From the IMG/VR virus record IMGVR_UViG_3300030103_000128, positions 1 through 22,795 of that record: a DNA stretch of 22,795 nt; one strand, given 5' to 3'. A program made the translations under genes and the position numbers. Source of the stretch: a virus. Shown one piece after another: positions 637 to 22,795 of this stretch (positions within the stretch are counted from its first letter, which is position 1; each line of letters starts with the position of its first letter). Under the pieces are notes generated by a model. It searched no databases and was not told where the DNA came from. It saw nothing but the letters and a program-made list of their open reading frames with translations.

Positions 637-861
637 TTACTCCTCCTCTGGTGGAGCATATCCTGTCAATGCTGTTGCCTCGTCTTGTGTAAGACCTAAA
701 TCTAAAAGTTTTTTGTTTCCTGTTTTTTGGTCGGCCACTTTTTTTATAGCAGCATCCTTTAAAACTTTTATTTCAGCATTTACATTTGCTCTATCTTTTT
801 CTAAAGCTGACACTTCTTCTGCAGTCATCTCTATTGTTTTACCATTTATAATTTTATGCAT
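637..861 (-). CDS. Small tail-assembly-chaperone-like protein (74 aa)
   Basis: A 74-residue soluble, helical, charged protein beginning MHKIINGKTIEMTAEE. That opening aligns by eye with the start of the clearer chaperone at 1462-1749 (MPRYHNINGTKVQFTAEEE), which is why I chose the ATG at 861 over the upstream ATG at 873. Neither start has a good Shine-Dalgarno, and translation is probably coupled to the preceding gene, whose stop overlaps it (ATGCATAA). The middle is a coiled-coil-like Glu/Lys segment. The end, KLLDLGLTQDEATALTG, resembles the C-terminus of several small phage tail proteins. It sits between two fibre-like genes, the position where fibre-assembly chaperones are usually found. 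Function is inferred from context and weak similarity only. Confidence 0.7.
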   Translation of the reverse strand: MHKIINGKTIEMTAEEVSALEKDRANVNAEIKVLKDAAIKKVADQKTGNKKLLDLGLTQDEATALTGYAPPEEE

Positions 862-1453
862 TTGTGTACCCATATATTTTTATGTTGTATGCAGTAATAT
901 TACCGCTATTAGCAACAAATTTTATCCCTCTAACTTGTTCTTCAGTATCATTATGACCCACTGATGTAGTAACGGCATGTGCGTTCTCTCCATCGTGATA
1001 ACCATAAGTAATTCCGTCATAATAAGTAACGGAACTTCCCATTGGATTTAAAAATTTACATGAAAATCTTGTATCTAGTCCTGCTTCACTTCCAGACCCT
1101 CTATTAAAGTAAAAGGTTGAAACATTATTATCATTATCGGTGGTATTTGTGGTATCGTTAGTGTGTACTCTATGAGCTGTTAAATAATAACTACTTGTTC
1201 TTTCGCTTCCGTCTGAAGATTTTAAAAATCTTAAATAAGTTCCCGCAGTATCACTTCTGTCAAATGTCATCTCAACATGATATAAATTATAAGTTGTTGT
1301 AAATACACTATCTATTGACACAGAACTAGCTGCACTTGATGAACTTGAAGAGTGTACTAACACTAGACCTTGTGGTGTTCCAGTCACAGTTCCCGTGAAT
1401 GCAAATGTGTCTGTTAGATCTATACCTGTTGAATCTACTTTTGTCTTACTCAT
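854..1453 (-). CDS. Receptor-binding / fibre-tip-like protein, paralogue D (divergent)
   Basis: A 199-residue protein with ATG at 1453 behind AGGAGG. It opens MSKTKVDSTGIDLTDTFAFTGTVTG, matching the start of the three tandem paralogues at 1774-3687 (SLNLAGTYGFSGTVTG and similar). It ends KFVANSGNITAYNIKIYGY, against F.FSSGNIDSG.I.LYGI in the others. The middle is more divergent: the NPSSTTF.KH motif has become NPMGSSVTYYD. Size, beta-rich composition and position among fibre genes suggest a small trimeric fibre tip or receptor-binding protein. No enzymatic motif is visible. It is separated from the other three paralogues by the chaperone-like gene at 1462-1749 and overlaps the next small gene at its stop. 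Confidence 0.75.
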   Translation of the reverse strand: MSKTKVDSTGIDLTDTFAFTGTVTGTPQGLVLVHSSSSSSAASSVSIDSVFTTTYNLYHVEMTFDRSDTAGTYLRFLKSSDGSERTSSYYLTAHRVHTNDTTNTTDNDNNVSTFYFNRGSGSEAGLDTRFSCKFLNPMGSSVTYYDGITYGYHDGENAHAVTTSVGHNDTEEQVRGIKFVANSGNITAYNIKIYGYTNA

Positions 1454-1773: not shown

Positions 1774-2403
1774 CTAGTTAATTCCATACATTTCTATTGT
1801 ACCTGAGTCTATGTTTCCGCTAGACATACTGAACTGAACTCCATCTATAGCTGCTGTAACATTACAGTATCCTGCTAAAAATGCATCTTGAGCAGCATTA
1901 TTTCCTTCTATTGTTATAGACCTAGCTATAAAATGTTTTACAAAAGTAGTAGAACTTGGGTCAAATAAAAATAATTCTCCACAAATATGTTGGTCGGCAT
2001 CATTACCTACAAACCTGTCTAAATTAGCCGCACTAGTGCTTTGCGCTAAATCACCACTAGTATTGTAAGACATTTGTGCTTCAGAATCATCTTCTTTATG
2101 AGATGCTTGAAAAAAACTTGTTGTTTTAGTGGCATCAAAATTACTGCTGCCATCTCTAAAATTTATTAAAAAGTTTTTTCTATCTTCTGAACCATGTATA
2201 TTAATAAATCTAAACTTATAAATATTGTAAGTATTATCTATACTACTAGTAAAACTTAATGTACTACTACTAGATGCTGTTAATGTAGCTAATTTTTTTT
2301 CTTCATACGCCCCTGAAGATGCACTACTTATAGAGTTAGTTCCTGTAAAAGCATAATTAGCAGTTAGGTCCATAGATGCAGGTTGTATCTTACTTAATGC
2401 CAT
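1774..2403 (-). CDS. Receptor-binding / fibre-tip-like protein, paralogue C
   Basis: A 209-residue protein starting MALSKIQPASMDLTANYAF. The ATG at 2403 lies inside the end of the upstream paralogue (14-bp overlap), and its Shine-Dalgarno (GGGAGG) is embedded in codons of that gene. Shared family landmarks are NIHG, FLINFRDGSSNFDATKT, FDPSSTTFVKHF and the C-terminal YCNVTAAIDGVQF ... SSGNIDSGTIEMYGIN. Over the last 31 residues, 23 are identical to paralogue B by direct comparison. It is beta-rich and Ser/Thr/Asp-rich, with no signal peptide or membrane segment. A receptor-binding role is inferred from the tandem paralogy, the fibre neighbourhood and the presence of assembly chaperones. Confidence 0.8.
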   Translation of the reverse strand: MALSKIQPASMDLTANYAFTGTNSISSASSGAYEEKKLATLTASSSSTLSFTSSIDNTYNIYKFRFINIHGSEDRKNFLINFRDGSSNFDATKTTSFFQASHKEDDSEAQMSYNTSGDLAQSTSAANLDRFVGNDADQHICGELFLFDPSSTTFVKHFIARSITIEGNNAAQDAFLAGYCNVTAAIDGVQFSMSSGNIDSGTIEMYGIN

Positions 2404-3028
2404 ATAACGCTATCCTCCCTGAATCTATGTTGCCACTACTAAATTGAAATCTAACTGCATCTATAGCTGCTGTGACATTACAATAACCTCCACCCATTCC
2501 TCTGTAATTTATATTATTTCTGTCATACCCTGAAAAATCAGAATTAAAATGTTTTATAAAAGTAGTGCTACTAGGATTAAATAAATACACATCTCCACTA
2601 CAACATTCATCACTACCATTGCCTTGATTTCTAGACAGCCTTGCATTACCTGTTCCTTGAGCAACATCTGCTCCTGTGTCATAAGCTAAACTTGCAACAG
2701 TAGAATCATCCTCTGAATGTCCTGAATCAAAAAATGTAGTTGTTTTAGTTGCATCATAATTAGAACCACCATCTCTAAAATTTATTTGAAATGCAACATT
2801 GTCTGTAGCAGGGTGAATATTTACACACCTAAACAAATATGTTTTATAAGTATTATCTAAAACTACACCACTAGCACCATTAACAAAATCTACTGTACCA
2901 CTAGAACTTGCATCAATATTCTTAATTAAAAATAATTTCTGTGTAGATACAACTCCAGTTACTGTGCCTGTTAGAGCATAGTTGTCTGTCAGGTCAAAAG
3001 AGTTTGCTGCTAATTTACTAAGTGCCAT
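2390..3028 (-). CDS. Receptor-binding / fibre-tip-like protein, paralogue B
   Basis: A 212-residue protein, MALSKLAANSFDLTDNYALTGTVTG at the start, whose ATG overlaps the stop of paralogue A (TAATG at 3028) with GGAG upstream. Landmarks are NIHPATDNVAFQINFRDG, SNYDATKT, LFNPSSTTFIKHF and YCNVTAAIDAVRFQF-SSGNIDSGRIALYGIK. It is closest to paralogue C, with near-identical blocks around FRDG.SN.DATKT and the C-terminus. One substitution near the C-terminus (GR instead of GT) coincides with bases that form the Shine-Dalgarno of the next gene. No catalytic motif is seen. It is a probable fibre-tip component or an alternative receptor-binding protein. Confidence 0.8.
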   Translation of the reverse strand: MALSKLAANSFDLTDNYALTGTVTGVVSTQKLFLIKNIDASSSGTVDFVNGASGVVLDNTYKTYLFRCVNIHPATDNVAFQINFRDGGSNYDATKTTTFFDSGHSEDDSTVASLAYDTGADVAQGTGNARLSRNQGNGSDECCSGDVYLFNPSSTTFIKHFNSDFSGYDRNNINYRGMGGGYCNVTAAIDAVRFQFSSGNIDSGRIALYGIK

Positions 3029-3687
3029 TATACTACTCCAAATAAATCTATCGTTCCGCCTTGTATTTCACCACTGTTAAATTCAAATTTAACATTGTTG
3101 ACTGCTGATGTTGTATTAACGTACCCTGCTGTATAAGTGTCATAAGCATATTGGTCGCCATCACCTGATGAAGTTACTGTGTGTGTTGTATAATGTTTTA
3201 CAAATGTAGTTGAACTAGGGTTATATAATTTCATAATACCAGATACTCCATCATCATTATTAGAACCTGTATCAGCACTAATATAATGAGTGCTACCACT
3301 AGCTGTATCAAAACCAGTTTGATATTCTAATGTAGGTCCTACACCTCCACCATCTTCTCTGTGATATGTTGTAAATGCTGAAGAGGTTAAACTTAAATTA
3401 TAATTAGAGCCATTATCAATACTAGGATGAAATCTTAAATACTTTTGATTAGTCCCTGGGTGTATATTATTAAACACAAACAAATATTCTTTATATGTAG
3501 AAGTTATATGTGAACTTGTAAATGTTGCATTTGCATCAGAACCATCAGAAGTAAATGTGCTTAATAATACTAAAGGTGTCTCATCAGCTAATCCTGTGAC
3601 TGTGCCACTAAAGCCATATGTACCTGCAAGATTTAAGCTATTGGCTTTTATCTTGGATAGTGATGTTCCAACTTCTCCAAATGCCAT
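3028..3687 (-). CDS. Receptor-binding / fibre-tip-like protein, paralogue A
   Basis: A 219-residue protein with ATG at 3687 behind AAAGG. After a short extension (MAFGEVGTSLSKI) it carries the family start KANSLNLAGTYGFSGTVTG. Shared landmarks follow: NNIHPGTNQKYLRF, LYNPSSTTFVKHY, a Gly/Asp/Tyr-rich loop, and the C-terminal AGYVNTTSAVNNVKFEFNSGEIQGGTIDLFGVV. It is the first of three directly adjacent paralogues (A, B, C), and a fourth (D) lies further on. It begins two bases after a small XkdW-like gene. The function is inferred to be host recognition; the fold is probably a beta-sandwich or jelly roll. Confidence 0.8.
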   Translation of the reverse strand: MAFGEVGTSLSKIKANSLNLAGTYGFSGTVTGLADETPLVLLSTFTSDGSDANATFTSSHITSTYKEYLFVFNNIHPGTNQKYLRFHPSIDNGSNYNLSLTSSAFTTYHREDGGGVGPTLEYQTGFDTASGSTHYISADTGSNNDDGVSGIMKLYNPSSTTFVKHYTTHTVTSSGDGDQYAYDTYTAGYVNTTSAVNNVKFEFNSGEIQGGTIDLFGVV

Positions 3688-12717: not shown

Positions 12718-13149
12718 TTAATATAAATGCAAGATATCCTCTGGATTCTTGATTGTTGCTAAAATTTCGTCATCATTTAAAATACGAATTTCTCCACCTT
12801 CTATTTGTAGGCGAGAACCTGCATATCTACCAAAGATAACCCAGTCTTTCTCTTTACACCACGGACCTTCCGTGAATTTGTTTAAATCTTTATATGCATC
12901 TGGTCCTACACTTAACACATATCCACATGTCGTGCTAACTGATTGCATTTCAATAGTTTGATCTGACAAAATAATACCGCCTTTTGTTTTACCTGTTCCT
13001 TTGTAAGGTAAAATTACTATTCTCCAACCTGTCGGTTTAGGTAGTCTTTCAGTTAATTTTTTTGGAATATTATTAGGATCAATCTTTTCTACTTGATCGT
13101 CTGCGACTTTGCCAAAGTTTAGAACTTTGTCTGGTATTGGTTTACTCAA
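12718..13149 (-). CDS. groES: GroES-like co-chaperonin (Cpn10)
   Basis: A 143-residue protein with a Cpn10 domain at ~37-134: PTGWRIVILPYKGTGKTKGGIIL, CGYVLSVGPDAY, KEKDWVIFGRYAGSRLQIEGGEIRILNDDEILATI. The segment KTKGGIILSDQTIE (~54-67) corresponds to the GroES mobile loop that docks on GroEL, including the hydrophobic GGIIL tip. A ~36-residue N-terminal extension is unusual compared with bacterial GroES (~97 residues). The start is TTG at 13149: it has AAGGAG at good spacing and no in-frame ATG precedes the domain. By analogy with T4 gp31, it would replace host GroES to fold capsid or other virion proteins; which client is an inference. It overlaps the 65-residue gene before it. Confidence 0.88.
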   Translation of the reverse strand: MSKPIPDKVLNFGKVADDQVEKIDPNNIPKKLTERLPKPTGWRIVILPYKGTGKTKGGIILSDQTIEMQSVSTTCGYVLSVGPDAYKDLNKFTEGPWCKEKDWVIFGRYAGSRLQIEGGEIRILNDDEILATIKNPEDILHLY

Positions 13150-13893: not shown

Positions 13894-14142
13894 TTATTTA
13901 TATTTGACGGTGTTCTTAACACCTTTGTGGCCTTGAGTGACAGTTTCAACATCACCGCCATCTTTGTACATCATGCCTCCGCCCATCATGCCTGGCACTT
14001 GTATTTCTTGAGGCATTCTGATTACTTCATCAACTTTGATGTCGCCACCTTTGTTATAACCCATTATCTTTTTAGCAACGTCAGGTCTTTTTGAGGCCAA
14101 CGCATTCATGCCTTTAGAAGGGTATTTTCCATTTTTTTTCAT
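13894..14142 (-). CDS. Small Gly/Met-rich protein with two GG-tag motifs (82 aa)
   Basis: I place the start at ATG 14142 because TAAGGAG, overlapping the stop of the upstream gene, lies six bases ahead; an upstream ATG at 14178 lacks such a site. The protein opens MKKNGKYPSKGMNALASKRPDVAKKIMGY, then NKGGDIKVDEVI, a Met/Gly-rich linker (MMGGGMMYKDGGDV) and a basic tail ending KNTVKYK. The K.MNALA.KRP.V..K.MG pattern is known from marine phage small proteins of unknown role. The two GG-D[IV] motifs recur in neighbouring proteins. Low complexity, no membrane span. Confidence 0.75.
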   Translation of the reverse strand: MKKNGKYPSKGMNALASKRPDVAKKIMGYNKGGDIKVDEVIRMPQEIQVPGMMGGGMMYKDGGDVETVTQGHKGVKNTVKYK

Positions 14143-14152
14143 CTTTGTCTCC

Positions 14153-14380
14153 TTAGTGTAAAGTTCTATCGGCATCACCGAAAGTCTGTCTCATAACTTC
14201 TAGTAAAAGACTTGTTGCTATCTCTTCACCTAGAGCTTGAGTATATAGTATTTTTGTGGCATTTAAAAATGCATTTGCAATAAAAATTGTGTCTTCATCA
14301 GACTCAGAATGCTCTTTAGTTATTTTATTAGCCTCCTGCAACACTTTTTGCGTTAATTTACTAATTTTAGCAGTGTCCAT
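14153..14380 (-). CDS. Small acidic helical protein (75 aa)
   Basis: The start is placed at ATG 14380, which shares bases with the upstream stop (TAATG); an ATG four codons earlier (14392) is an alternative. The sequence, MDTAKISKLTQKVLQEANKITK then EHSESDEDTIFIANAFLNATKILYTQ and LGEEIATSLLLEVMRQTFGD, is helical, acidic and soluble. It stands out from its Lys-rich neighbours by its acidic charge, which could let it pair with them. No family is recognised. Confidence 0.68.
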   Translation of the reverse strand: MDTAKISKLTQKVLQEANKITKEHSESDEDTIFIANAFLNATKILYTQALGEEIATSLLLEVMRQTFGDADRTLH

Positions 14381-14930: not shown

Positions 14931-15045
14931 TCTTTTTACCAATAACCGATTTTAAAGTTTTAGCTTGACCCGCATGTAATTTAGATGCTTTGTTAAGTCC
15001 TTTAATAACTTTTTTTACTTTGTTTTTATTTTTTGGTTTAAGCAT
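14908..15045 (-). CDS. Tiny polycationic protein with no acidic residues (45 aa)
   Basis: A 45-codon gene in the gap between two small basic genes; ATG at 15045 overlaps the upstream stop (ATGCTTAA) and its end overlaps the next gene. The protein (MLKPKNKNKVKKVIKGLNKA then SKLHAGQAKTLKSVIGKKNG) has 15 Lys and 1 Arg, and no Asp or Glu. The KGL.KASKLHAGQAKTL core is a pattern I associate with small marine phage proteins, supporting it as a real gene. A DNA-compacting or packaging role is inferred from charge and position. Confidence 0.72.
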   Translation of the reverse strand: MLKPKNKNKVKKVIKGLNKASKLHAGQAKTLKSVIGKKNGKKRSS

Positions 15046-15310
15046 AACTGGTTGACTTTCTTTTTCCTTCCATTACAGCTCCACACCCTCTGGCAACACC
15101 ACCATTATTCATATGTGATACTTTTTTTCTAGATTGCGATAGTTTATTTCCATCACCAATCATTCCACCGCTAGCTTTTTTATTTTTCTTGCCTCCTGGT
15201 GTAATCTTTCCACTACAAACCCCGCTTGCATACATATTAGCATACGCGCTAGGGTAGACATCGAATTTGGCCTTGGCTGCCGCTTTTCCTCTTGCACATA
15301 ATTTGCCCAT
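15038..15310 (-). CDS. Small basic Cys-containing protein with YPSAYAN and RGCG motifs (90 aa)
   Basis: ATG at 15310 behind GAGGAGAT inside the portal gene's end. The N-terminal part is MGKLCARGKAAAKAKFDVYP then SAYANMYASGVCSGKI; this CA.GK.AAK.KF.VYPSAYAN.YAS.VC.GK pattern occurs in small proteins of marine phages and some giant viruses. The C-terminal part has ASGGMIGDGNK and MNNGGVARGCGAVMEGKRKS, a GG/RGCG-type tail that recurs in uncultured marine phages. About 18 basic against 3 acidic residues. It follows the portal gene directly. Unknown function; a virion-associated or DNA-associated role is inferred. Confidence 0.8.
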   Translation of the reverse strand: MGKLCARGKAAAKAKFDVYPSAYANMYASGVCSGKITPGGKKNKKASGGMIGDGNKLSQSRKKVSHMNNGGVARGCGAVMEGKRKSTSYA

Positions 15311-15311
15311 T

Positions 15312-17762
15312 TTAATTATCTCCTCTTTTTTTAGTGTCTCTGTCTTTGTCTGCTTTGTCTAAAGCAACGTTTGCACGTAATTGTGCAATGTCTTCTTGAC
15401 TTTCTATCTTTTCTCTAGTTAATTTATCAGTTTGCATTAGTTTTTTCTCATCTAAAGCTTGTTTTTCGCCCATTGCTTGTGCTTTTAACTCTAAATCGTC
15501 CTTTCTAAGGTTAATTTCTTGTTGTTTTAAGTCCACAAGTGGATCAGAACTAGAAGTATCCATCATTTCTTGCTCTTCTGCAACCATTTGTTCTATAATT
15601 TCAGCTATTTTTACTGCAACACCACTTTCGGTACGTTGTGAAAGCTCTTGTTGTTGTTCTTGAGTCATTTGACCTCCTGTTTGTGCCATAATTTGCTCCA
15701 TTTCAGGTGCTATTTCTTGTTCTACAATCATTCTAGCCATAAAACTAACGTGTTCCGTAATATGTGCTTGTAAAATTGTCATTGTTGCAGGATTATTTTT
15801 GACTAATTCTGATGACATAAAGGCTCTGTGTGCTCTTATGTGAGCAGAATGATCTTGTTCAGGGAAAGGAATAGGTGGCATACCGTTTAAAGTTCCTGCA
15901 TTTTCAATTGCAGGATCTTGTGCCTGTGGTTCTTGAGGTGCTGGTAATAATTTTTCTATATTTTGTACACCTAAAGCAGAATACATTCTTGAATATGCTT
16001 CTCTTAAATCATGCATCTCAGGATTTGATTGAGCTAATTGTAATTGAGATTGAGCAAGAGTTACTCTTTGTGCCATAGAAAAGATGTTTGGATCTGAAAC
16101 AGGTATAACATCTACTCTTTCATCAAAGTCTGCTTTTTTAACTGATTGTTCTCCACCTGATACCATGTAAGGATAATTTTCAGGTAGATAATCAGCAAAA
16201 ACTTTTGCTAATAATTTAAATTCTGTTTTTTGTGCATAGTGCAATCTTTTATGAATAGCTGACATAACTTTCATGCCACGCTCTAAGATGGCCATAGTTG
16301 TTCCAACAGGCTGTTGCTGACTACCAGCATTCTCACCCATCATCATATCTGCTACACCAGCAAATCTTCTTCCTGCATCTACAACAAAACCTAATAATTG
16401 AAATAACGTTGCACTAGGTTCTTTGTAAGGTAATGGCATAAGTGACTCACGTAAATTACCCCCAGGTGCATCTACATCTCTCCATTCGCCAGGATTGATT
16501 GCTTCATCATCATCTCTAATTCTTAAACCTCTAGCTTTAAAACCAGCAGGTAAGTTAGATAAAGTTCCAGCATCTACCAATTGACGTAGAGCTGCAGTTG
16601 CGGTTCTTGATAAACCACCTAGCATGTGAATTAAACCAAAGCCATAGAATCCTAAGCCAGGTAAAAATTTAAAATGTGTAAAATACTCTTTCTTTTTACG
16701 TAGAGGATCACCTTGATTCCAGTTTCGATATATAGATAAAATTTGACCAGAGTCCTCATCAAGAGTTACAATATAAGGCAACATAATTCCTGTTTTTTTA
16801 TTGTCAGCGCCCATGTCCTCAAAACCTGGTAAATCTAAATCAACATGCATTTCCAAAACATTGTGCTCTTCTTCTGCGAAAGAAATTTGTTCTACTCCAG
16901 ATAGCTCATCTTGTTTTTCTTTTATGTCTGAAGGATTTGCCGTGCTTGGTGAAAGCTCTACATCTCTATAAAAACCAGAAACTTGATTCTTTCTTAAATC
17001 ATTGTGTTTCATTTTAACAACGTGAGTAATTCTACCACAAGATTCTAAGTCAGTGATAAAATATGGAACGACCAAATCTTCTGCTGGTACAAATTTAGAT
17101 ACCGCTCTTTCTAATGTACCGTCATAGTAAACTTTTTTGAATGCTGAACCTGCTAAAGGTAAATGAAATAATAACTGATCTAGCTCAGGATCAAATTCTT
17201 GCATTTGACAAGTAATTTGATAGTTCATAAATTGTTTAATTCTTTCAGCTTGTTGTTCTACCTCAAGACTAGGTGCTCCCATTATTTCTGTTCTAACGGG
17301 ACCTCCTGGAGGTAGTAATTCTTTGTATGCTTGTGCTTGAAACTGTGTGACTGCTTCTGCAAGCAGTGGATGTGTTACACCTGCAGCTCCTGCAAAAGGT
17401 TTTGATCTTTCTTCATATTTAAATCCAAGAAGATCTAATCCGTCTTTGTATGTCTTTTCCCAATCGGATCTAGAACTTTTATCGTCTTCAAAGTTTTTTT
17501 GTAAATCAGAAGATAATTTATCTAATAAATCATCTTCCATAAACTCTGCTATGTTCGCAAAATAGTCACCTTGAGATTGTTTTTTATTGGGATCAAAATC
17601 TAAAGTGACCCCTCCATCTTCTTCTTCAATAATTTCATAGCCTTTACTGGTGTTCTCAGGCTCTGTTAATTGTATTTCTTCTCCTACACCCTCTACTTCA
17701 AGTGCATTATTAGCATTGGGAGATATATCTATTGCTGTATTTTGTATTCGTTTTTCTACCAT
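15312..17762 (-). CDS. Portal protein (816 aa)
   Basis: ATG at 17762 with AGGAG upstream, overlapping the end of the 1368-residue gene. An acidic N-terminal tail (1-90) precedes the conserved region: YKDGLDLLGFKYEERSKPFAGA, GVTHPLLAEAVTQFQAQAYK, LLPPGGPVRTEIMG (~105-165), then PLAGSAFKKVYYD, VPAEDLVVPYFITDLESC, KFLPGLGFYGFGLIHMLGGL and GTLSNLPAGFKARGLRIRDDD (the stem and crown region). MVGENAGSQQQPVGTTMAILE-like residues follow at ~480. The last ~150 residues are Gln/Glu-rich coiled coil (QQEINLRKDDLELKAQA). This is the large portal type of marine podovirus-like phages. It forms the dodecameric DNA gate at one capsid vertex and docks the terminase and the neck proteins. Confidence 0.92.
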   Translation of the reverse strand: MVEKRIQNTAIDISPNANNALEVEGVGEEIQLTEPENTSKGYEIIEEEDGGVTLDFDPNKKQSQGDYFANIAEFMEDDLLDKLSSDLQKNFEDDKSSRSDWEKTYKDGLDLLGFKYEERSKPFAGAAGVTHPLLAEAVTQFQAQAYKELLPPGGPVRTEIMGAPSLEVEQQAERIKQFMNYQITCQMQEFDPELDQLLFHLPLAGSAFKKVYYDGTLERAVSKFVPAEDLVVPYFITDLESCGRITHVVKMKHNDLRKNQVSGFYRDVELSPSTANPSDIKEKQDELSGVEQISFAEEEHNVLEMHVDLDLPGFEDMGADNKKTGIMLPYIVTLDEDSGQILSIYRNWNQGDPLRKKKEYFTHFKFLPGLGFYGFGLIHMLGGLSRTATAALRQLVDAGTLSNLPAGFKARGLRIRDDDEAINPGEWRDVDAPGGNLRESLMPLPYKEPSATLFQLLGFVVDAGRRFAGVADMMMGENAGSQQQPVGTTMAILERGMKVMSAIHKRLHYAQKTEFKLLAKVFADYLPENYPYMVSGGEQSVKKADFDERVDVIPVSDPNIFSMAQRVTLAQSQLQLAQSNPEMHDLREAYSRMYSALGVQNIEKLLPAPQEPQAQDPAIENAGTLNGMPPIPFPEQDHSAHIRAHRAFMSSELVKNNPATMTILQAHITEHVSFMARMIVEQEIAPEMEQIMAQTGGQMTQEQQQELSQRTESGVAVKIAEIIEQMVAEEQEMMDTSSSDPLVDLKQQEINLRKDDLELKAQAMGEKQALDEKKLMQTDKLTREKIESQEDIAQLRANVALDKADKDRDTKKRGDN

Positions 17763-20700
17763 CTACTGGCTCCTATAGGCGACAGTAACTCATTAACAGA
17801 AACTATCGGTGTGTATAATATACTTTTTTTCACAAGACCTCCATCTTTTTTATACGCTTTATATGGGAACAACATGTCAGGTGTCAATTCAATCATAAAA
17901 GTATCTACTCCCTCTCCTGCCATACCAAATTTCACTTTTCCCACCTCTACTTTAGAACTTTTTGCATTTGCTATTTTATTTAAACTTTCTTCTACATTAC
18001 CTGTAAAGTGTGTGCCAGTATGGTCATTTAAGTTTGGCCCACCATATTGCATATCATAAGCAACCATTTTACCACTTCTGTTAGGATCATCGGGTGAAAG
18101 TTCTACTCCATTACCACCTCTGTAAGCTTTGACAGCTTTATTGGGTGCTACACCATAATGAGAAGGTGCATCTCTGTTTACTTGTAAAGCTCCATTTTCA
18201 TCAAAATAAAATCTTTTCTTAGCTGCATTGTAGACGTCATTTTTAATTATAGCGTCTACCCAATCCTTTTGATCTTTAAAAGGTATGTTAGGAAATAATT
18301 CTCTAGCATCTATATTATCAATAGAAGCATTTATTGTAGCTAATGCCTGATCTCTTTTTGTTGCGGCTTCTCCTAATTGTTTAAAACTTTCTTTAGTTAA
18401 ATCATCAATATCCATTTTAGATATTTTTTCAAATATTGCATCGCTTTCTATTAATTTATCTAATGATTTTTTTAACTGTGCATAAGTTGCAGGCATAGGT
18501 CTAAAAACATTTTCTAGTTTTTTATAAAGCTGTTCTATCTGTTGATTTCCATATGTAAATGGTCCTCGGTCTTGTACAAGAGTTCTTATGTCTTTTTTAA
18601 TATTAGATTTTAATGTAGCTGCTTTTTGCAGAAAGTCTGACTGTATCTCATCTGCTACATTTACAACAATATCTCTGTTGTTTAATTTTGCAATTCGATT
18701 ACTTCCCAATGACCAACCTATGACATATGGTTCTCCATCTAATTTATTTTCTTGCGCCATAAAATCGTCACTAGTTCTGACTTCACGCATTTCTCTATGA
18801 CCTTCATATCTTCTTATATCAGAAGGTAGAGAACCTATGTCTCCTCTAATGTCTTTAGAGTCTAGCCACAATACTCTTTCTGTTCTTGAACCACCAATAT
18901 AATCATCTTGTCTTCCAGAGTTACCGTATTTTAAATTACCTGCTTCATCACTGTAGGATACTGTTTGAATATAATTAGAAGGAGATGTATCTACTAATTC
19001 TTTTATTTCTGCAAAAGTTATTTTCTCATCATTTGTAAACTGTCCTGTCTCCCTGTTAAATCCACCTTTTTTATTTAAATAAGATCTTACGTAAGAGTCA
19101 TACAGTTCACCTTCTTTGATACCTTTAGATCTAAACCAATCGTGCCATTCTTTAGCTGACATATTAACAGTGTCATTTGGCACTGTAACTCCCTTGATTG
19201 TCAAATTACCTGTGTCGGTGTTTATTACAGAATTTAAATCTGAGTAAAATAATTTGTTATTCCCAGAACCAATAGCATTCTCTGGAACTATCGTAGAAAC
19301 AAGTGATGTTCCTGGTTTTGTTGTTTTGGATTTTTTTACTTTGACAGGTACTTCTATTTCTTTCACAGTAAATTGTTTACCTTCTAAGTCACCTAGCTTT
19401 AATGCTTTTTGTTGTGCATCATCTATACTTTTACTTTGATAAACTTTATTACCATTCTCATCAAATATATTATACCTCTTCTCTAAAATAGGTGCTTCAG
19501 GTGGAGGTAATTGTTTTACGGTTTCTGTTTTCTTTACAAGCTTTGGTGTGTCACCTAATAAAAAGTTTTTAGGTAGAGGTAATGCTTCTGCTTCAGGAAT
19601 TATAAAGTTACTAACTGCTGAAGCAGCTTTTGATAAAAATGATTGATCCTCTTGTTCTGTTTTCACTTCTCCTCCTTGGTCAAAGGATTTTAAATAACCC
19701 TTTTCATTTTTAATATCCGAAGGCTTTAATTTATTTTCTATGGCATAGTCTAAAATTTCTTGAAGTCTTGTTGCACCTATTTCCACTCTTTGATTTAAAG
19801 TAACTGATTTCGGGTCTTCAATACCATAAATTACTGTGTCTTTTTTACCACTTTTTTTTGTAATAGGAACTATAGTTCTAATTAGTCTGTCTTTATAAAT
19901 TCCATCTATTACTCCTGATACCTCCTGCATCAATTCATATTGATTATTAAATTTATTTAAATTTGGCTTATAGCCATAGTCTTCTAATATATCTAATAAT
20001 TTTTGATTTATAGGATTTTTTCTAGTTAGATCTTTGTTATTAATTTTTAAATCAGTAATTTGCGAAAATTCTTTTTTTAATCCCTCTTGATTTAATATAT
20101 CTCCTAAAATGTTTGCATAGGGATCTAATTTAACTTGTAAATAGTTATAAGCTTGAAGGTGAGGTTGTATAAATTCTGTTTCGGTTCCAGCACCTTTAAA
20201 TCTTCCTACATTTTGTAATCTACCACTTCCCTCTGTTCTAGTAACAAATAATGGGATATCATGTGTTTTGTCAAACTGTAGAATTTTATAATCAATTTTA
20301 TTATCTTTATTCAAAAGGTAAGGTCTGTATTTTTCATTTTTAGCCAACTCATTTAAAATGTCACGACCCGCCACATTTGCATTTGTTCTTTGTAATTCTA
20401 AATTAACATAAAGAGGAAAGTCTTCTAAATCTTGATCACTCATGTATTTATTAATAAAGTCTTCTGTGTTTAATTTTTCATTACCTTTTGTTTGTTTTAT
20501 ACTACGAAACTTATCGTACATATAATCTTGAAAAAGTTGAAAAGGAGATACTGTTTCAGCTTTGTATTTTCCCGCTCTTCTTAAATCGTTAATTTTTTTA
20601 AAAGTTTCAGGATCAATATTTTTAAAATATTTATTTAAGTCAGCTTTGTTTGAAAAAATTTCTGCTGCCTCTCTGTTAAAAATTTTTCTTGGATCATTAG

Positions 20701-21862
20701 TTTGTCCTTTTACAGTATTCCCTCTGATAACTATGTCGTCTATCTTTTGTTTTAATACAGGATCTTGTGCCGTGTAACTGTTAAGAAGGGTAGGGTCCAT
20801 ACCAATTGCATCTGCAAGCTCTACTCTTGTTTTATAGAATATGTTGTTTTGTTGAGCATTGTTTACAACTTTATTTATTTTTTCTCTACCTATTTCACCT
20901 GCTTTAGAAGTAGCTTTCGATAAACCCTCTTTTGCGTTTAATTCGATTTTTGCAAATTTTTCATCCGAAACTAAACCATATTTTAAAAGATTGTTTTTAA
21001 CTCCAGCTTTAACTCCTCTGCTGTACTCTTTAATAAGAGGGTTAAGGTTGTTTTCTTTTAAAATACTGGCAAACGATCCATCTAATTTATCTATAGGAGT
21101 GTTATCTATTATTTCAGCAAATCTTAAAATATTATCTAAGTCTTTCTTGTTTTTAAATTCTTTAAAATTTTTAGGATCAGAATAAAATTTTTCTCTAGGA
21201 TTTATTTTATTTTCCTTTGAAAGAAGATTAGAAACCTCTTGCACTTTTTCAGGAGGAAGAGTATTTATAATATTTTTTAAAGCACCGAAGTCCTGTTTAC
21301 TTAATGCTTTTCTAATTGTGCTAACTACTCCTGATCCAATACCTGCAACGTCTGCTACATCAACGAATCCAATTAAATAGTTTGCAAGATCTTGACCTTC
21401 CAATTGAGAGGGTCTTATTTCACCATCAGCTACCTTCTTGTGAATATCATAAGTATCACCAAAGAAAAATTCTCTGCCTTTGTTAAGAACGTTCATGACA
21501 GTTGTTTTAGGGTAGCCAATCGCTACCATGTCATCTTCAAGCTGTTCGATAGCTAATAGTTGTTCTCGTGATTTAGGAGGTAATTGTAAAATATTTTGTA
21601 TCCTAGTTCTTGCTCCTTCTAAGAAAGATGCTTGTGTTTGATCTTTAGCTGCAATGTCTGCTTTGATTTGTTGACGCTCTTCTTCTGATGTTCCGGGGAC
21701 CAAGAACCGTAGTATGGGTTCAACGGCTATATCAGAGACCGCCTCGAAAGGTATTTCAGTTGTTCTTGTTAAAGTGTTACTAAGGAAAGCAGGTATTTGA
21801 TCTATACCTTGTCTTACATTATCAATAAAATTATTTTTTAGTGCGCTGTTTTTATCTACCAT
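17756..21862 (-). CDS. Giant polyvalent protein with C-terminal DEIQSD-type domain (1368 aa)
   Basis: ATG at 21862 overlaps the terminase stop (TAATG). Residues 1-~700 are helical and Lys/Asp/Asn-rich without a family I can name; a small hydrophobic stretch (~160-185, NYLIGFVDVADVAGIGSGVV) is the only membrane-like part. FDQGGEVK (727-734) ends the first half. A Pro/Lys-rich linker runs to ~850. Residues ~900-1340 resemble the large domain of phage polyvalent proteins: WLDSKDIRGDIG, EGHREMREVRTSDDF (~1020-1034), VIGWSLG, VVNVADEIQSDFLQ (~1066-1079), PFKDQKDWVDAI (~1194), and VEVGKVKFGM ... FMIELTPDML (~1305-1331). It ends with KKDGGLVKK and a short tail. Such proteins are often injected with or packaged alongside phage DNA; its activity is unknown. 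The gene sits between terminase and portal, a place for packaged or internal proteins. Confidence 0.82.
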   Translation of the reverse strand: MVDKNSALKNNFIDNVRQGIDQIPAFLSNTLTRTTEIPFEAVSDIAVEPILRFLVPGTSEEERQQIKADIAAKDQTQASFLEGARTRIQNILQLPPKSREQLLAIEQLEDDMVAIGYPKTTVMNVLNKGREFFFGDTYDIHKKVADGEIRPSQLEGQDLANYLIGFVDVADVAGIGSGVVSTIRKALSKQDFGALKNIINTLPPEKVQEVSNLLSKENKINPREKFYSDPKNFKEFKNKKDLDNILRFAEIIDNTPIDKLDGSFASILKENNLNPLIKEYSRGVKAGVKNNLLKYGLVSDEKFAKIELNAKEGLSKATSKAGEIGREKINKVVNNAQQNNIFYKTRVELADAIGMDPTLLNSYTAQDPVLKQKIDDIVIRGNTVKGQTNDPRKIFNREAAEIFSNKADLNKYFKNIDPETFKKINDLRRAGKYKAETVSPFQLFQDYMYDKFRSIKQTKGNEKLNTEDFINKYMSDQDLEDFPLYVNLELQRTNANVAGRDILNELAKNEKYRPYLLNKDNKIDYKILQFDKTHDIPLFVTRTEGSGRLQNVGRFKGAGTETEFIQPHLQAYNYLQVKLDPYANILGDILNQEGLKKEFSQITDLKINNKDLTRKNPINQKLLDILEDYGYKPNLNKFNNQYELMQEVSGVIDGIYKDRLIRTIVPITKKSGKKDTVIYGIEDPKSVTLNQRVEIGATRLQEILDYAIENKLKPSDIKNEKGYLKSFDQGGEVKTEQEDQSFLSKAASAVSNFIIPEAEALPLPKNFLLGDTPKLVKKTETVKQLPPPEAPILEKRYNIFDENGNKVYQSKSIDDAQQKALKLGDLEGKQFTVKEIEVPVKVKKSKTTKPGTSLVSTIVPENAIGSGNNKLFYSDLNSVINTDTGNLTIKGVTVPNDTVNMSAKEWHDWFRSKGIKEGELYDSYVRSYLNKKGGFNRETGQFTNDEKITFAEIKELVDTSPSNYIQTVSYSDEAGNLKYGNSGRQDDYIGGSRTERVLWLDSKDIRGDIGSLPSDIRRYEGHREMREVRTSDDFMAQENKLDGEPYVIGWSLGSNRIAKLNNRDIVVNVADEIQSDFLQKAATLKSNIKKDIRTLVQDRGPFTYGNQQIEQLYKKLENVFRPMPATYAQLKKSLDKLIESDAIFEKISKMDIDDLTKESFKQLGEAATKRDQALATINASIDNIDARELFPNIPFKDQKDWVDAIIKNDVYNAAKKRFYFDENGALQVNRDAPSHYGVAPNKAVKAYRGGNGVELSPDDPNRSGKMVAYDMQYGGPNLNDHTGTHFTGNVEESLNKIANAKSSKVEVGKVKFGMAGEGVDTFMIELTPDMLFPYKAYKKDGGLVKKSILYTPIVSVNELLSPIGASRW

Positions 21863-22795
21863 TAGTAATATTCTCGTTGAAGTCTAGGTACGGGATCATC
21901 CACATAGTCATCGCTCAAGCGTAAGAAATTACCCTGTCTAAAACGCATTACGGCCTGTGTCATGCTATCCACCAAGTCATCATGATCTCCATAGGGGAAT
22001 GCTGCACATTCCTCGATTACATCCTCCGACCATCTTGTGTCGGGTGTCCATATCATACCACTTTCAAACAACGGTGCAACCGAATTAACACGGACGTGTT
22101 TATCTTGTCCTCTACTAGGAGTATAATTAACAACAGGGACTCCCATCTGACGTAACTCGTGTGTTAGGGGTAGACCCGATGCTTTCGCTTCCACGATCAC
22201 TGTTTCGGGTTCCCAGTATTTATATTCTTTGAAGGCTATCTTTTTTAATTCAGGAAAGTCCCACCGACCTCGTTTGGCATCTAAAAGAATCAAATGTGCT
22301 GTATTGTTTGTCTTGGGATAAAACACACCCCATGTGGTAATAGCAGAATAGTCAGCCGTCTCTCGTTTACTGAACGCTGTATCGTAGCTTTGTATAATAT
22401 GGTGAAGATCAGGTATATCTTTCTCTTCCCACATTTGCCACCACTCTCGTTTAATAATACTACCTTCTTGTGATACGGGAGCCTGTTGCCATTGTGCATT
22501 CCACTTGGTAGCGGACAGTGAAGCTTTGACAGATTCTAACTCTTCTAGCTTCCAGAATCCTGGCCAAACGGGTTTGTTGCTAGGCATGATAGCAGGGAAC
22601 TCTACTACCTCCCATTGATCTGCTTTGAGTTCTCCTTGCTTCTTCATCAGCTTTCCTGTTAAGTCTTTGACGGACCAACGAGTCATAACGATAACAATCG
22701 CACCACCTGGCTGTAAACGCTGACGAGGACCCGAGGTATACCACTCATATGCTGAATCGAGAGCCGTGTCGCTCAGTGCGTCTTGCTCGGAATGT
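21862..22795 (-). CDS. terL: Terminase large subunit, 5' end cut off by window edge
   Basis: The frame is open to the right edge (310 codons visible). The visible part starts HSEQDALSD, the stretch that typically follows the Walker B DDP, so the ATPase P-loop lies outside. LQPGGAIVIVMTRWSVKDL is the late ATPase coupling region. The nuclease domain shows its acidic residues: QSYDTAFSKRETADYSAI (first Asp, ~138 of the visible part), VIVEAKASGLPL (Glu, ~202) and GDHDDLVDSMTQA (Asp cluster, ~270). It pumps DNA into the prohead through the portal and cuts concatemers. The ATG at 22686 lies inside the coupling motif and is not the true start. The stop overlaps the next gene by one base. Confidence 0.95.
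   Translation of the reverse strand, partial: HSEQDALSDTALDSAYEWYTSGPRQRLQPGGAIVIVMTRWSVKDLTGKLMKKQGELKADQWEVVEFPAIMPSNKPVWPGFWKLEELESVKASLSATKWNAQWQQAPVSQEGSIIKREWWQMWEEKDIPDLHHIIQSYDTAFSKRETADYSAITTWGVFYPKTNNTAHLILLDAKRGRWDFPELKKIAFKEYKYWEPETVIVEAKASGLPLTHELRQMGVPVVNYTPSRGQDKHVRVNSVAPLFESGMIWTPDTRWSEDVIEECAAFPYGDHDDLVDSMTQAVMRFRQGNFLRLSDDYVDDPVPRLQREYY

What the first reader, a model, noticed from the sequence alone, without database searches (positions are those of the whole stretch)
17756..21862. A 1368-residue polyvalent protein sits between terminase and portal
The terminase and portal genes are normally adjacent or separated by small genes. Here a 4.1-kb gene of unknown function lies between them, translationally coupled to both (TAATG at the start, 7-bp overlap at the end). 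Its last ~450 residues carry the DEIQSD core and a terminal ..ELTPDML block, as in large phage polyvalent proteins that I associate with co-injected or packaged effectors. The first ~700 residues match no family I recognise. The gene's place in the packaging operon suggests an internal or ejection protein delivered with the genome, perhaps with an enzymatic domain around EGHREMREVRTSDDF / DEIQSDF.
Basis: partly seen in the sequence, partly recalled or inferred. Interest (0 to 1): 0.75.

Follow-up and report, generated by a model that had tools for sequence, protein, structure and literature searches.

The report
Marine phage protein with swappable middle
A very large marine phage protein, encoded between the DNA-packaging motor and the portal, has conserved ends but a middle third that is exchanged wholesale between close relatives, which suggests a modular host-adaptation or attack protein that may travel with the viral DNA.

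Summary
In detail: a 1368-residue gene (minus strand, 17756-21862) lies between terminase and portal, overlapping them by 1 and 7 bases. It marks one uncultured marine lineage: 53 of 53 tested contigs with a portal 60% identical or more carry it directly upstream; 0 of 18 with portals 42-51% identical do. Its last ~400 residues belong to a widespread phage domain (signature EIQSDW; hhalign E 6.6e-8) that sits in genuine polyvalent proteins and matched no Pfam family in 6 of 6 tested members. The predicted core resembles GNAT acetyltransferases, but the GNAT CoA-binding motif is absent in 44 of 44 relatives. Best reading: a polyvalent effector or internal protein, made with head genes and perhaps injected, with a recombining middle. 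Packaging, injection and enzyme activity are inferred, not shown.

The parts
17756..21862 (-). the whole gene, 1368 aa
   Evidence: 59 relatives in viral contigs
21188..21862 (-). N-terminal block, residues 1-225; several alleles (76-89% or ~30-45% identical between relatives)
   Evidence: mostly helical in the model, first ~60 residues under pLDDT 50
19688..21187 (-). variable cassette, residues ~226-725
   Evidence: background identity between relatives with conserved flanks; 8 sequence clusters in 25 proteins
19703..20410 (-). C-proximal half of the cassette, residues 485-720; confident in the model; near-invariant H534 and N573
   Evidence: [AST]H..N..[QH] pattern in 26 of 26 (pattern made after seeing the alignment)
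19493..19699 (-). linker, residues 722-790: predicted disordered but conserved; holds QGGEV at the cassette border (G730 invariant, G731 and V733 nearly so in A5)
17861..18982 (-). EIQSD domain, residues ~961-1334, with a helical insert (model residues ~400-468)
18635..18649 (-). EIQSD signature, residues 1072-1076
   Evidence: invariant in 44 sequences
17870..17890 (-). ELTPDML, residues 1325-1331
   Evidence: [IVL].[IVL]TP.M in 44 of 44 family members
17831..17845 (-). second GG motif, DGGLV, residues 1340-1344
21862..22794 (-). terminase large subunit, C-terminal 310 aa (cut by the window end)
15312..17762 (-). portal protein

Best explanation
A lineage-specific phage polyvalent protein in three exchangeable blocks. 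Shown here: an N-terminal block (1-225), a recombining cassette (~226-725), and a conserved C-terminal part with a domain of the phage EIQSDW family, in a fixed gene slot between TerL and portal, coupled to both. Inferred: it is made with head proteins, enters the capsid or portal region, and is delivered with the DNA; the EIQSD domain, whose predicted core looks like a divergent GNAT, modifies a host target; the cassette supplies the part that must keep changing, for instance a host-, defence- or competitor-specific activity; alleles are traded between related phages at the conserved flanks.
For: Fixed slot: 53 of 53 contigs with portal 60% identical or more and 120 bases or more upstream have it, 0 of 18 at 42-51%. 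EIQSDW homology: hhalign probability 94.6, E 6.6e-8; 20 column-shuffled controls at most 0.7. Domain company: 4 of 7 long EIQSDW ORFs had a Pfam hit, 2 of them polyvalent families (LPD22; ART-PolyVal + PBECR5), the others GGDEF and phage lysozyme. Structure: the three best BFVD matches (E 4.8e-7, 1.4e-6, 5.1e-4) include a 'Large polyvalent protein associated domain-containing protein'. GNAT-like core: best VIA match AtaT Z 8.2, 129 of 157 residues, rmsd 3.4; all 14 listed rows that span the alpha/beta core are GNATs, the other 36 rows cover only helices within 361-468. Cassette: 27 of 41 pairs with C-part 85% or more have a middle under 30% (e.g. L027-L028 N 86, middle 25, C 99); DNA identity drops from ~80-93% to ~35-50% around codons 200-250 and recovers to ~94% by 750 in window versus L014 and L008. 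Movement: L251 carries residues 488-733 at 62% identity while its C-part is ~25% and its portal 62% identical.
Against: No virion proteomics or expression data were found for this protein; a close isolate is not in the phage collection. GNAT motif A ([QR]..G.[GA]) is absent from the 30 residues after E in 44 of 44 family members and present in only 17 of 89 EIQSDW relatives; Z 8 is near what models without a true match reach (note); Pfam GNAT PF00583 does not match the window. Foldseek against PDB gave nothing under E 0.35. The C-model is only moderately confident (mean pLDDT 63.6, pTM 0.57). The cassette matches no family, so its role is open. Fast divergence instead of exchange could explain part of the pattern: some cassette clusters are distantly related (6 of 28 cluster pairs at hhalign probability over 80).
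Confidence: 0.5

Rival explanations
1. Internal or ejection protein without enzymatic effector role: a mostly helical virion protein that forms part of the DNA-delivery channel; the middle varies because it meets the host envelope.
For: Head-operon position, large size, mostly helical N-half, fixed presence.
Against: The conserved EIQSD domain shared with polyvalent proteins is unexplained. No solved ejection protein matches convincingly: the cyanophage A4 pre-ejectosome appears only at Foldseek E 7 and VIA Z 4.0 over 49 residues.
Confidence: 0.25
2. Cassette as nuclease-type module against host or competing phage DNA: residues 485-720 are a divergent His-Me (HNH-like) finger with H534 as base and N573 on the helix, and variable helix-turn-helix-like pieces choose the target.
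For: Predicted strand 530-534 ending in H534, strand 565-569, helix 570-590 holding N573; H534 and N573 near-invariant or invariant in alignments; pattern in 26 of 26 proteins over 8 clusters and L051. HNH proteins beside terminases and HTH look are recalled or by eye.
Against: No HNH or HTH family match in 20 segments scanned (10 each, best hits unrelated and below cut-off). The loop between the strands is under pLDDT 50. The search pattern was made after seeing the alignment and matches a second place in 3 of 26 proteins.
Confidence: 0.25
3. DNA-packaging accessory protein: works with TerL or portal and varies with packaging signals.
For: Position and coupling.
Against: TerL and portal stay 90-100% identical between phages whose cassettes share nothing detectable, and related phages with the same kind of portal lack the gene.
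Confidence: 0.1

Closest known systems
Phage polyvalent proteins (Iyer et al. 2017, PMC5512222; passages read)
   Same: Large phage protein with a domain that also occurs beside LPD22, ART-PolyVal and PBECR5; phage with terminase and portal.
   Different: Only one recognisable domain family; middle matches none; cassette exchange between fixed ends was not among the passages I read.
EIQSDW domain of phage giants (no Pfam match in 6 of 6 tested; inside phrog_7348 'endolysin')
   Same: EIQSD, P..PFK..W, profile homology over 136 columns.
   Different: Window family has F for W, lacks the GR..GY stretch after the signature, and carries a long helical insert.
GNAT acetyltransferase toxins AtaT, KacT, TacT (solved structures)
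   Same: Predicted core aligns over most of the GNAT domain, Z 7-8.
   Different: CoA motif A missing; no sequence similarity to solved structures.
Bacterial polymorphic toxins (recalled)
   Same: Conserved delivery-type part joined to an interchangeable module.
   Different: Variable module is in the middle, and there is no room for an immunity gene next to it.

Membership tests
EIQSDW phage domain | profile homology to the family | tested here: met
   hhalign probability 94.6, E 6.6e-8; shuffled controls
EIQSDW phage domain | EIQSD plus P..PFK..W | tested here: met
   EIQSD invariant; P.[IV]P[FL]K in 44 of 44, stricter form with W in 39 of 44
polyvalent protein | domain shared with accepted polyvalent proteins | tested here: met
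   EIQSDW ORFs with LPD22 or ART-PolyVal + PBECR5: 2 of 7 scanned
polyvalent protein | two or more disparate biochemical domains in one chain | tested here: inconclusive
   cassette matches no family
polyvalent protein | packaged and injected with DNA | not testable with these tools
   needs virion proteomics
GNAT acetyltransferase | GNAT fold | tested here: inconclusive
   VIA Z 8.2 to AtaT, 14 GNAT rows; Foldseek PDB nothing under E 0.35
GNAT acetyltransferase | motif A [QR]..G.[GA] after strand 4 | tested here: not met
   0 of 44
GNAT acetyltransferase | acetyl-CoA-dependent activity | not testable with these tools
   needs purified protein
HNH / His-Me nuclease | beta-beta-alpha site with catalytic His | tested here: inconclusive
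   topology around H534/N573 in the model, loop at low confidence
HNH / His-Me nuclease | match to an HNH family profile | tested here: not met
   none in 10 segments
phage ejection protein | fold match to a solved ejection protein | tested here: inconclusive
   only E 7 and Z 4.0
polymorphic toxin | variable module at the C-terminus | tested here: not met
   variable part is internal, residues ~226-725
polymorphic toxin | adjacent immunity gene | tested here: not met
   TerL and portal overlap the gene on both sides

The most novel reading that the evidence does not exclude
A phage-borne modular effector: fixed N- and C-terminal parts that place the protein in the packaging machinery and a middle cassette traded between phages by recombination, so that each phage delivers a different early weapon, against the host, its defences or rival phages, from the same gene slot between terminase and portal.
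Probability: 0.35. Interest if true: 0.8.

Novelty: new variant of a known kind. Interest (0 to 1): 0.6.

Why it matters
If right, it shows that a lineage of abundant, mostly uncultured marine phages keeps an exchangeable effector slot inside its packaging operon, comparable in logic to bacterial polymorphic toxins but with the variable part in the middle. The cassette borders make the idea directly testable: alleles can be cloned and compared.

Tried and rejected
Pfam, PHROGs and PDB-sequence searches of the protein and its parts gave no family; isolated weak hits were below cut-off and inconsistent. N-half model against PDB: best Foldseek E 0.46, best VIA Z 5.7 over 46 residues; two TasH rows, a nuclease I first took as a hint for HNH, appear at E 5.5 and 6.7 and align only helices 70-118 in VIA, so I dropped that hint. 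C-model against PDB by Foldseek: nothing under E 0.35. Relatives in annotated phages and in prokaryote genomes (64 pattern matches, none confirmed): none. Homology to the slot proteins of HTVC027P, HTVC023P, 023Pt_psg01 and DSL-LC04: none convincing.

GG motif as a shared packaging or cleavage signal: 11 sites against 2.57 expected in the window, 13 against 4.00 in HTVC027P, but 12 against 11.43 in HTVC023P; pattern chosen after seeing it. Left as a lead. Promoters and terminators in 15000-22795: no more than in shuffles (19 against 26.1; 4 against 4.5). Repeats in the gene: only short two-copy matches, no recombination signal seen. Stronger early wording 'non-homologous replacement' was softened: 6 of 28 cassette cluster pairs are related at profile level.

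Rows left out: L017 (identical to L016); L051 and L053 from the clusters and pairs, L053; 32 of 120 stretches were not read (88 read); 47 of 89 EIQSDW matches went into alignment A6; 6 of 80 portal loci without a portal start were left out.

Full report
Observation. The gene is on the minus strand, 17756-21862, 1368 aa. It overlaps TerL by one base and the portal by seven. TerL and portal are named by PHROGs and Pfam matches. The protein itself has no convincing family match.

Relatives. Viral contigs gave 59 loci and 66 with the C-terminal alignment (many the same contigs). None were found in 50,697 phage records by tblastn or in prokaryote genomes. The portal's nearest annotated relatives are Pelagibacter phages HTVC027P and HTVC023P, 52-54% identical; the host of the window's phage is unknown. 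An independent portal search (92 relatives, best 80 kept) gave 74 loci with a portal start: of those with at least 120 bases upstream, 51 of 51 with portal identity 75% or more and 2 of 2 at 61-62% have the C-terminal part upstream; 0 of 11 at 50-51% and 0 of 7 at 42-44% do (3 loci had too little sequence). So the gene is a fixed mark of one lineage, while other phages use the slot for other genes or leave it nearly empty.

Three blocks. In 26 relatives the C-terminal part (721-1368) is 37-92% identical to the window by segment. In L008 and L014 the N-block is 76-84% and the C-part 85-91% identical while residues 231-720 are at 17-30%, the level of chance in such global alignments. Over all 300 pairs of 25 proteins, 41 have C-parts at least 85% identical, and 27 of these have a middle under 30%; the correlation of N with C identity is 0.73 but of middle with C 0.32 and N with middle 0.25. 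Examples: L027-L028 N 86, middle 25, C 99; L045-L047 N 44, middle 22, C 99; L012-L007 N 89, middle 27, C 90; but L003-L004 N 45, middle 87, C 93, so the N-block moves too. The DNA shows the same borders (50-codon bins). The 25 middles fall in 8 clusters at E 1e-5; 6 of 28 cluster pairs are related by hhalign at probability over 80, none of 56 reversed controls exceeds 20. Searches with two cassettes found 10 and 6 loci; L251 carries residues 488-733 at 62% identity although its C-part is only 24-25% and its portal 62% identical, and in L253 the match follows a TerL 70% identical. I found no cassette outside this slot, but the searches reach close relatives only.

C-terminal domain. Profile comparison of the window family with 47 of them: probability 94.6, E 6.6e-8 over 136 columns, from residues ~1026 to 1218. 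Of 7 long ORFs scanned, 4 had Pfam hits: LPD22; ART-PolyVal and PBECR5; GGDEF; phage lysozyme. The domain itself had no Pfam match in 6 of 6 and fell in phrog_7348, labelled endolysin. The AlphaFold model of residues 722-1368 (44 sequences, mean pLDDT 63.6, pTM 0.57) matches polyvalent-type viral models (low TM-scores of 0.14-0.23) and, within its core, GNATs: AtaT Z 8.2, KacT and TacT 7-8; 14 of 50 rows, and the only rows covering the alpha/beta part. Against this stand the missing motif A (0 of 44; 17 of 89 in the EIQSDW relatives), the modest Z and the lack of a Foldseek PDB hit under E 0.35. I therefore say GNAT-like fold, about 60% likely, not a GNAT member.

Cassette content. The N-half model (27 sequences, mean pLDDT 67.6, pTM 0.47) is mostly helical with no solved relative. 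Residues 470-535 and 565-720 are confident. A strand ending in H534, a strand 565-569 and a helix holding N573 look like a His-Me finger, and H534/N573 persist in every cluster, but no family profile agrees. This is a lead.

Mechanism. Shown: fixed slot, coupling, EIQSDW membership, cassette exchange. Inferred: late synthesis with head proteins, packaging, injection, host modification by the EIQSD domain, and a variable activity in the cassette. The polyvalent-protein paper (PMC5512222, passages read) argues that phage polyvalent proteins are packaged and injected and lists GNATs among their domains, which fits. The HTVC027P transcriptome paper (PMC12753301, passages and section 12 read) gives timing classes but no word on terminase or portal in the text; the HTVC023P-type genome paper (PMC9599517, passages read) does not mention portal. 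The AXL1 paper (PMC9206674, passages read) describes another head-operon polyvalent protein. A search for EIQSD in print returned two papers whose titles are unrelated to phages, and searches for a polyvalent protein with virion mass spectrometry or with terminase and portal gave two papers each; the library is open-access only.

Verdict. The new and more surprising feature is the exchangeable middle.

Noticed in passing
window 13894-14178 and 15038-15310; residues 729-733 and 1340-1344 of the protein: A GG.[VI] motif recurs in this protein and in small proteins of the head operon (11 sites in the window against 2.57 expected; 13 against 4.00 in HTVC027P; no excess in HTVC023P). It could mark cleavage or packaging.
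   Followed up: partly
L089-L176 (EIQSDW ORFs): A widespread phage domain with signature EIQSDW matched no Pfam model in 6 of 6 tested and sits inside a 2564-position PHROG labelled endolysin, probably a misleading label.
   Followed up: partly
window 854-1453, 1774-2403, 2390-3028, 3028-3687: Four neighbouring ~200-219-aa proteins look like paralogues by their N-terminal sequences.
   Followed up: no
window 12718-13149: By position and a shared KTKGG stretch this looks like the GroES co-chaperonin annotated in HTVC027P and HTVC023P.
   Followed up: no
L041 near 5431: The relative of this gene in L041 is read in two frames near its 3' end, a frameshift or assembly error.
   Followed up: no
L064 4400-6877: Phage DSL-LC04 has a protein annotated PcfJ-like in the same TerL-portal slot.
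   Followed up: no
window residues 722-790: The linker after the cassette is predicted disordered (pLDDT under 50 over model residues 1-69) yet has a clear consensus (AEALPLPKNFLLGD), as expected of a binding or cleavage site.
   Followed up: no
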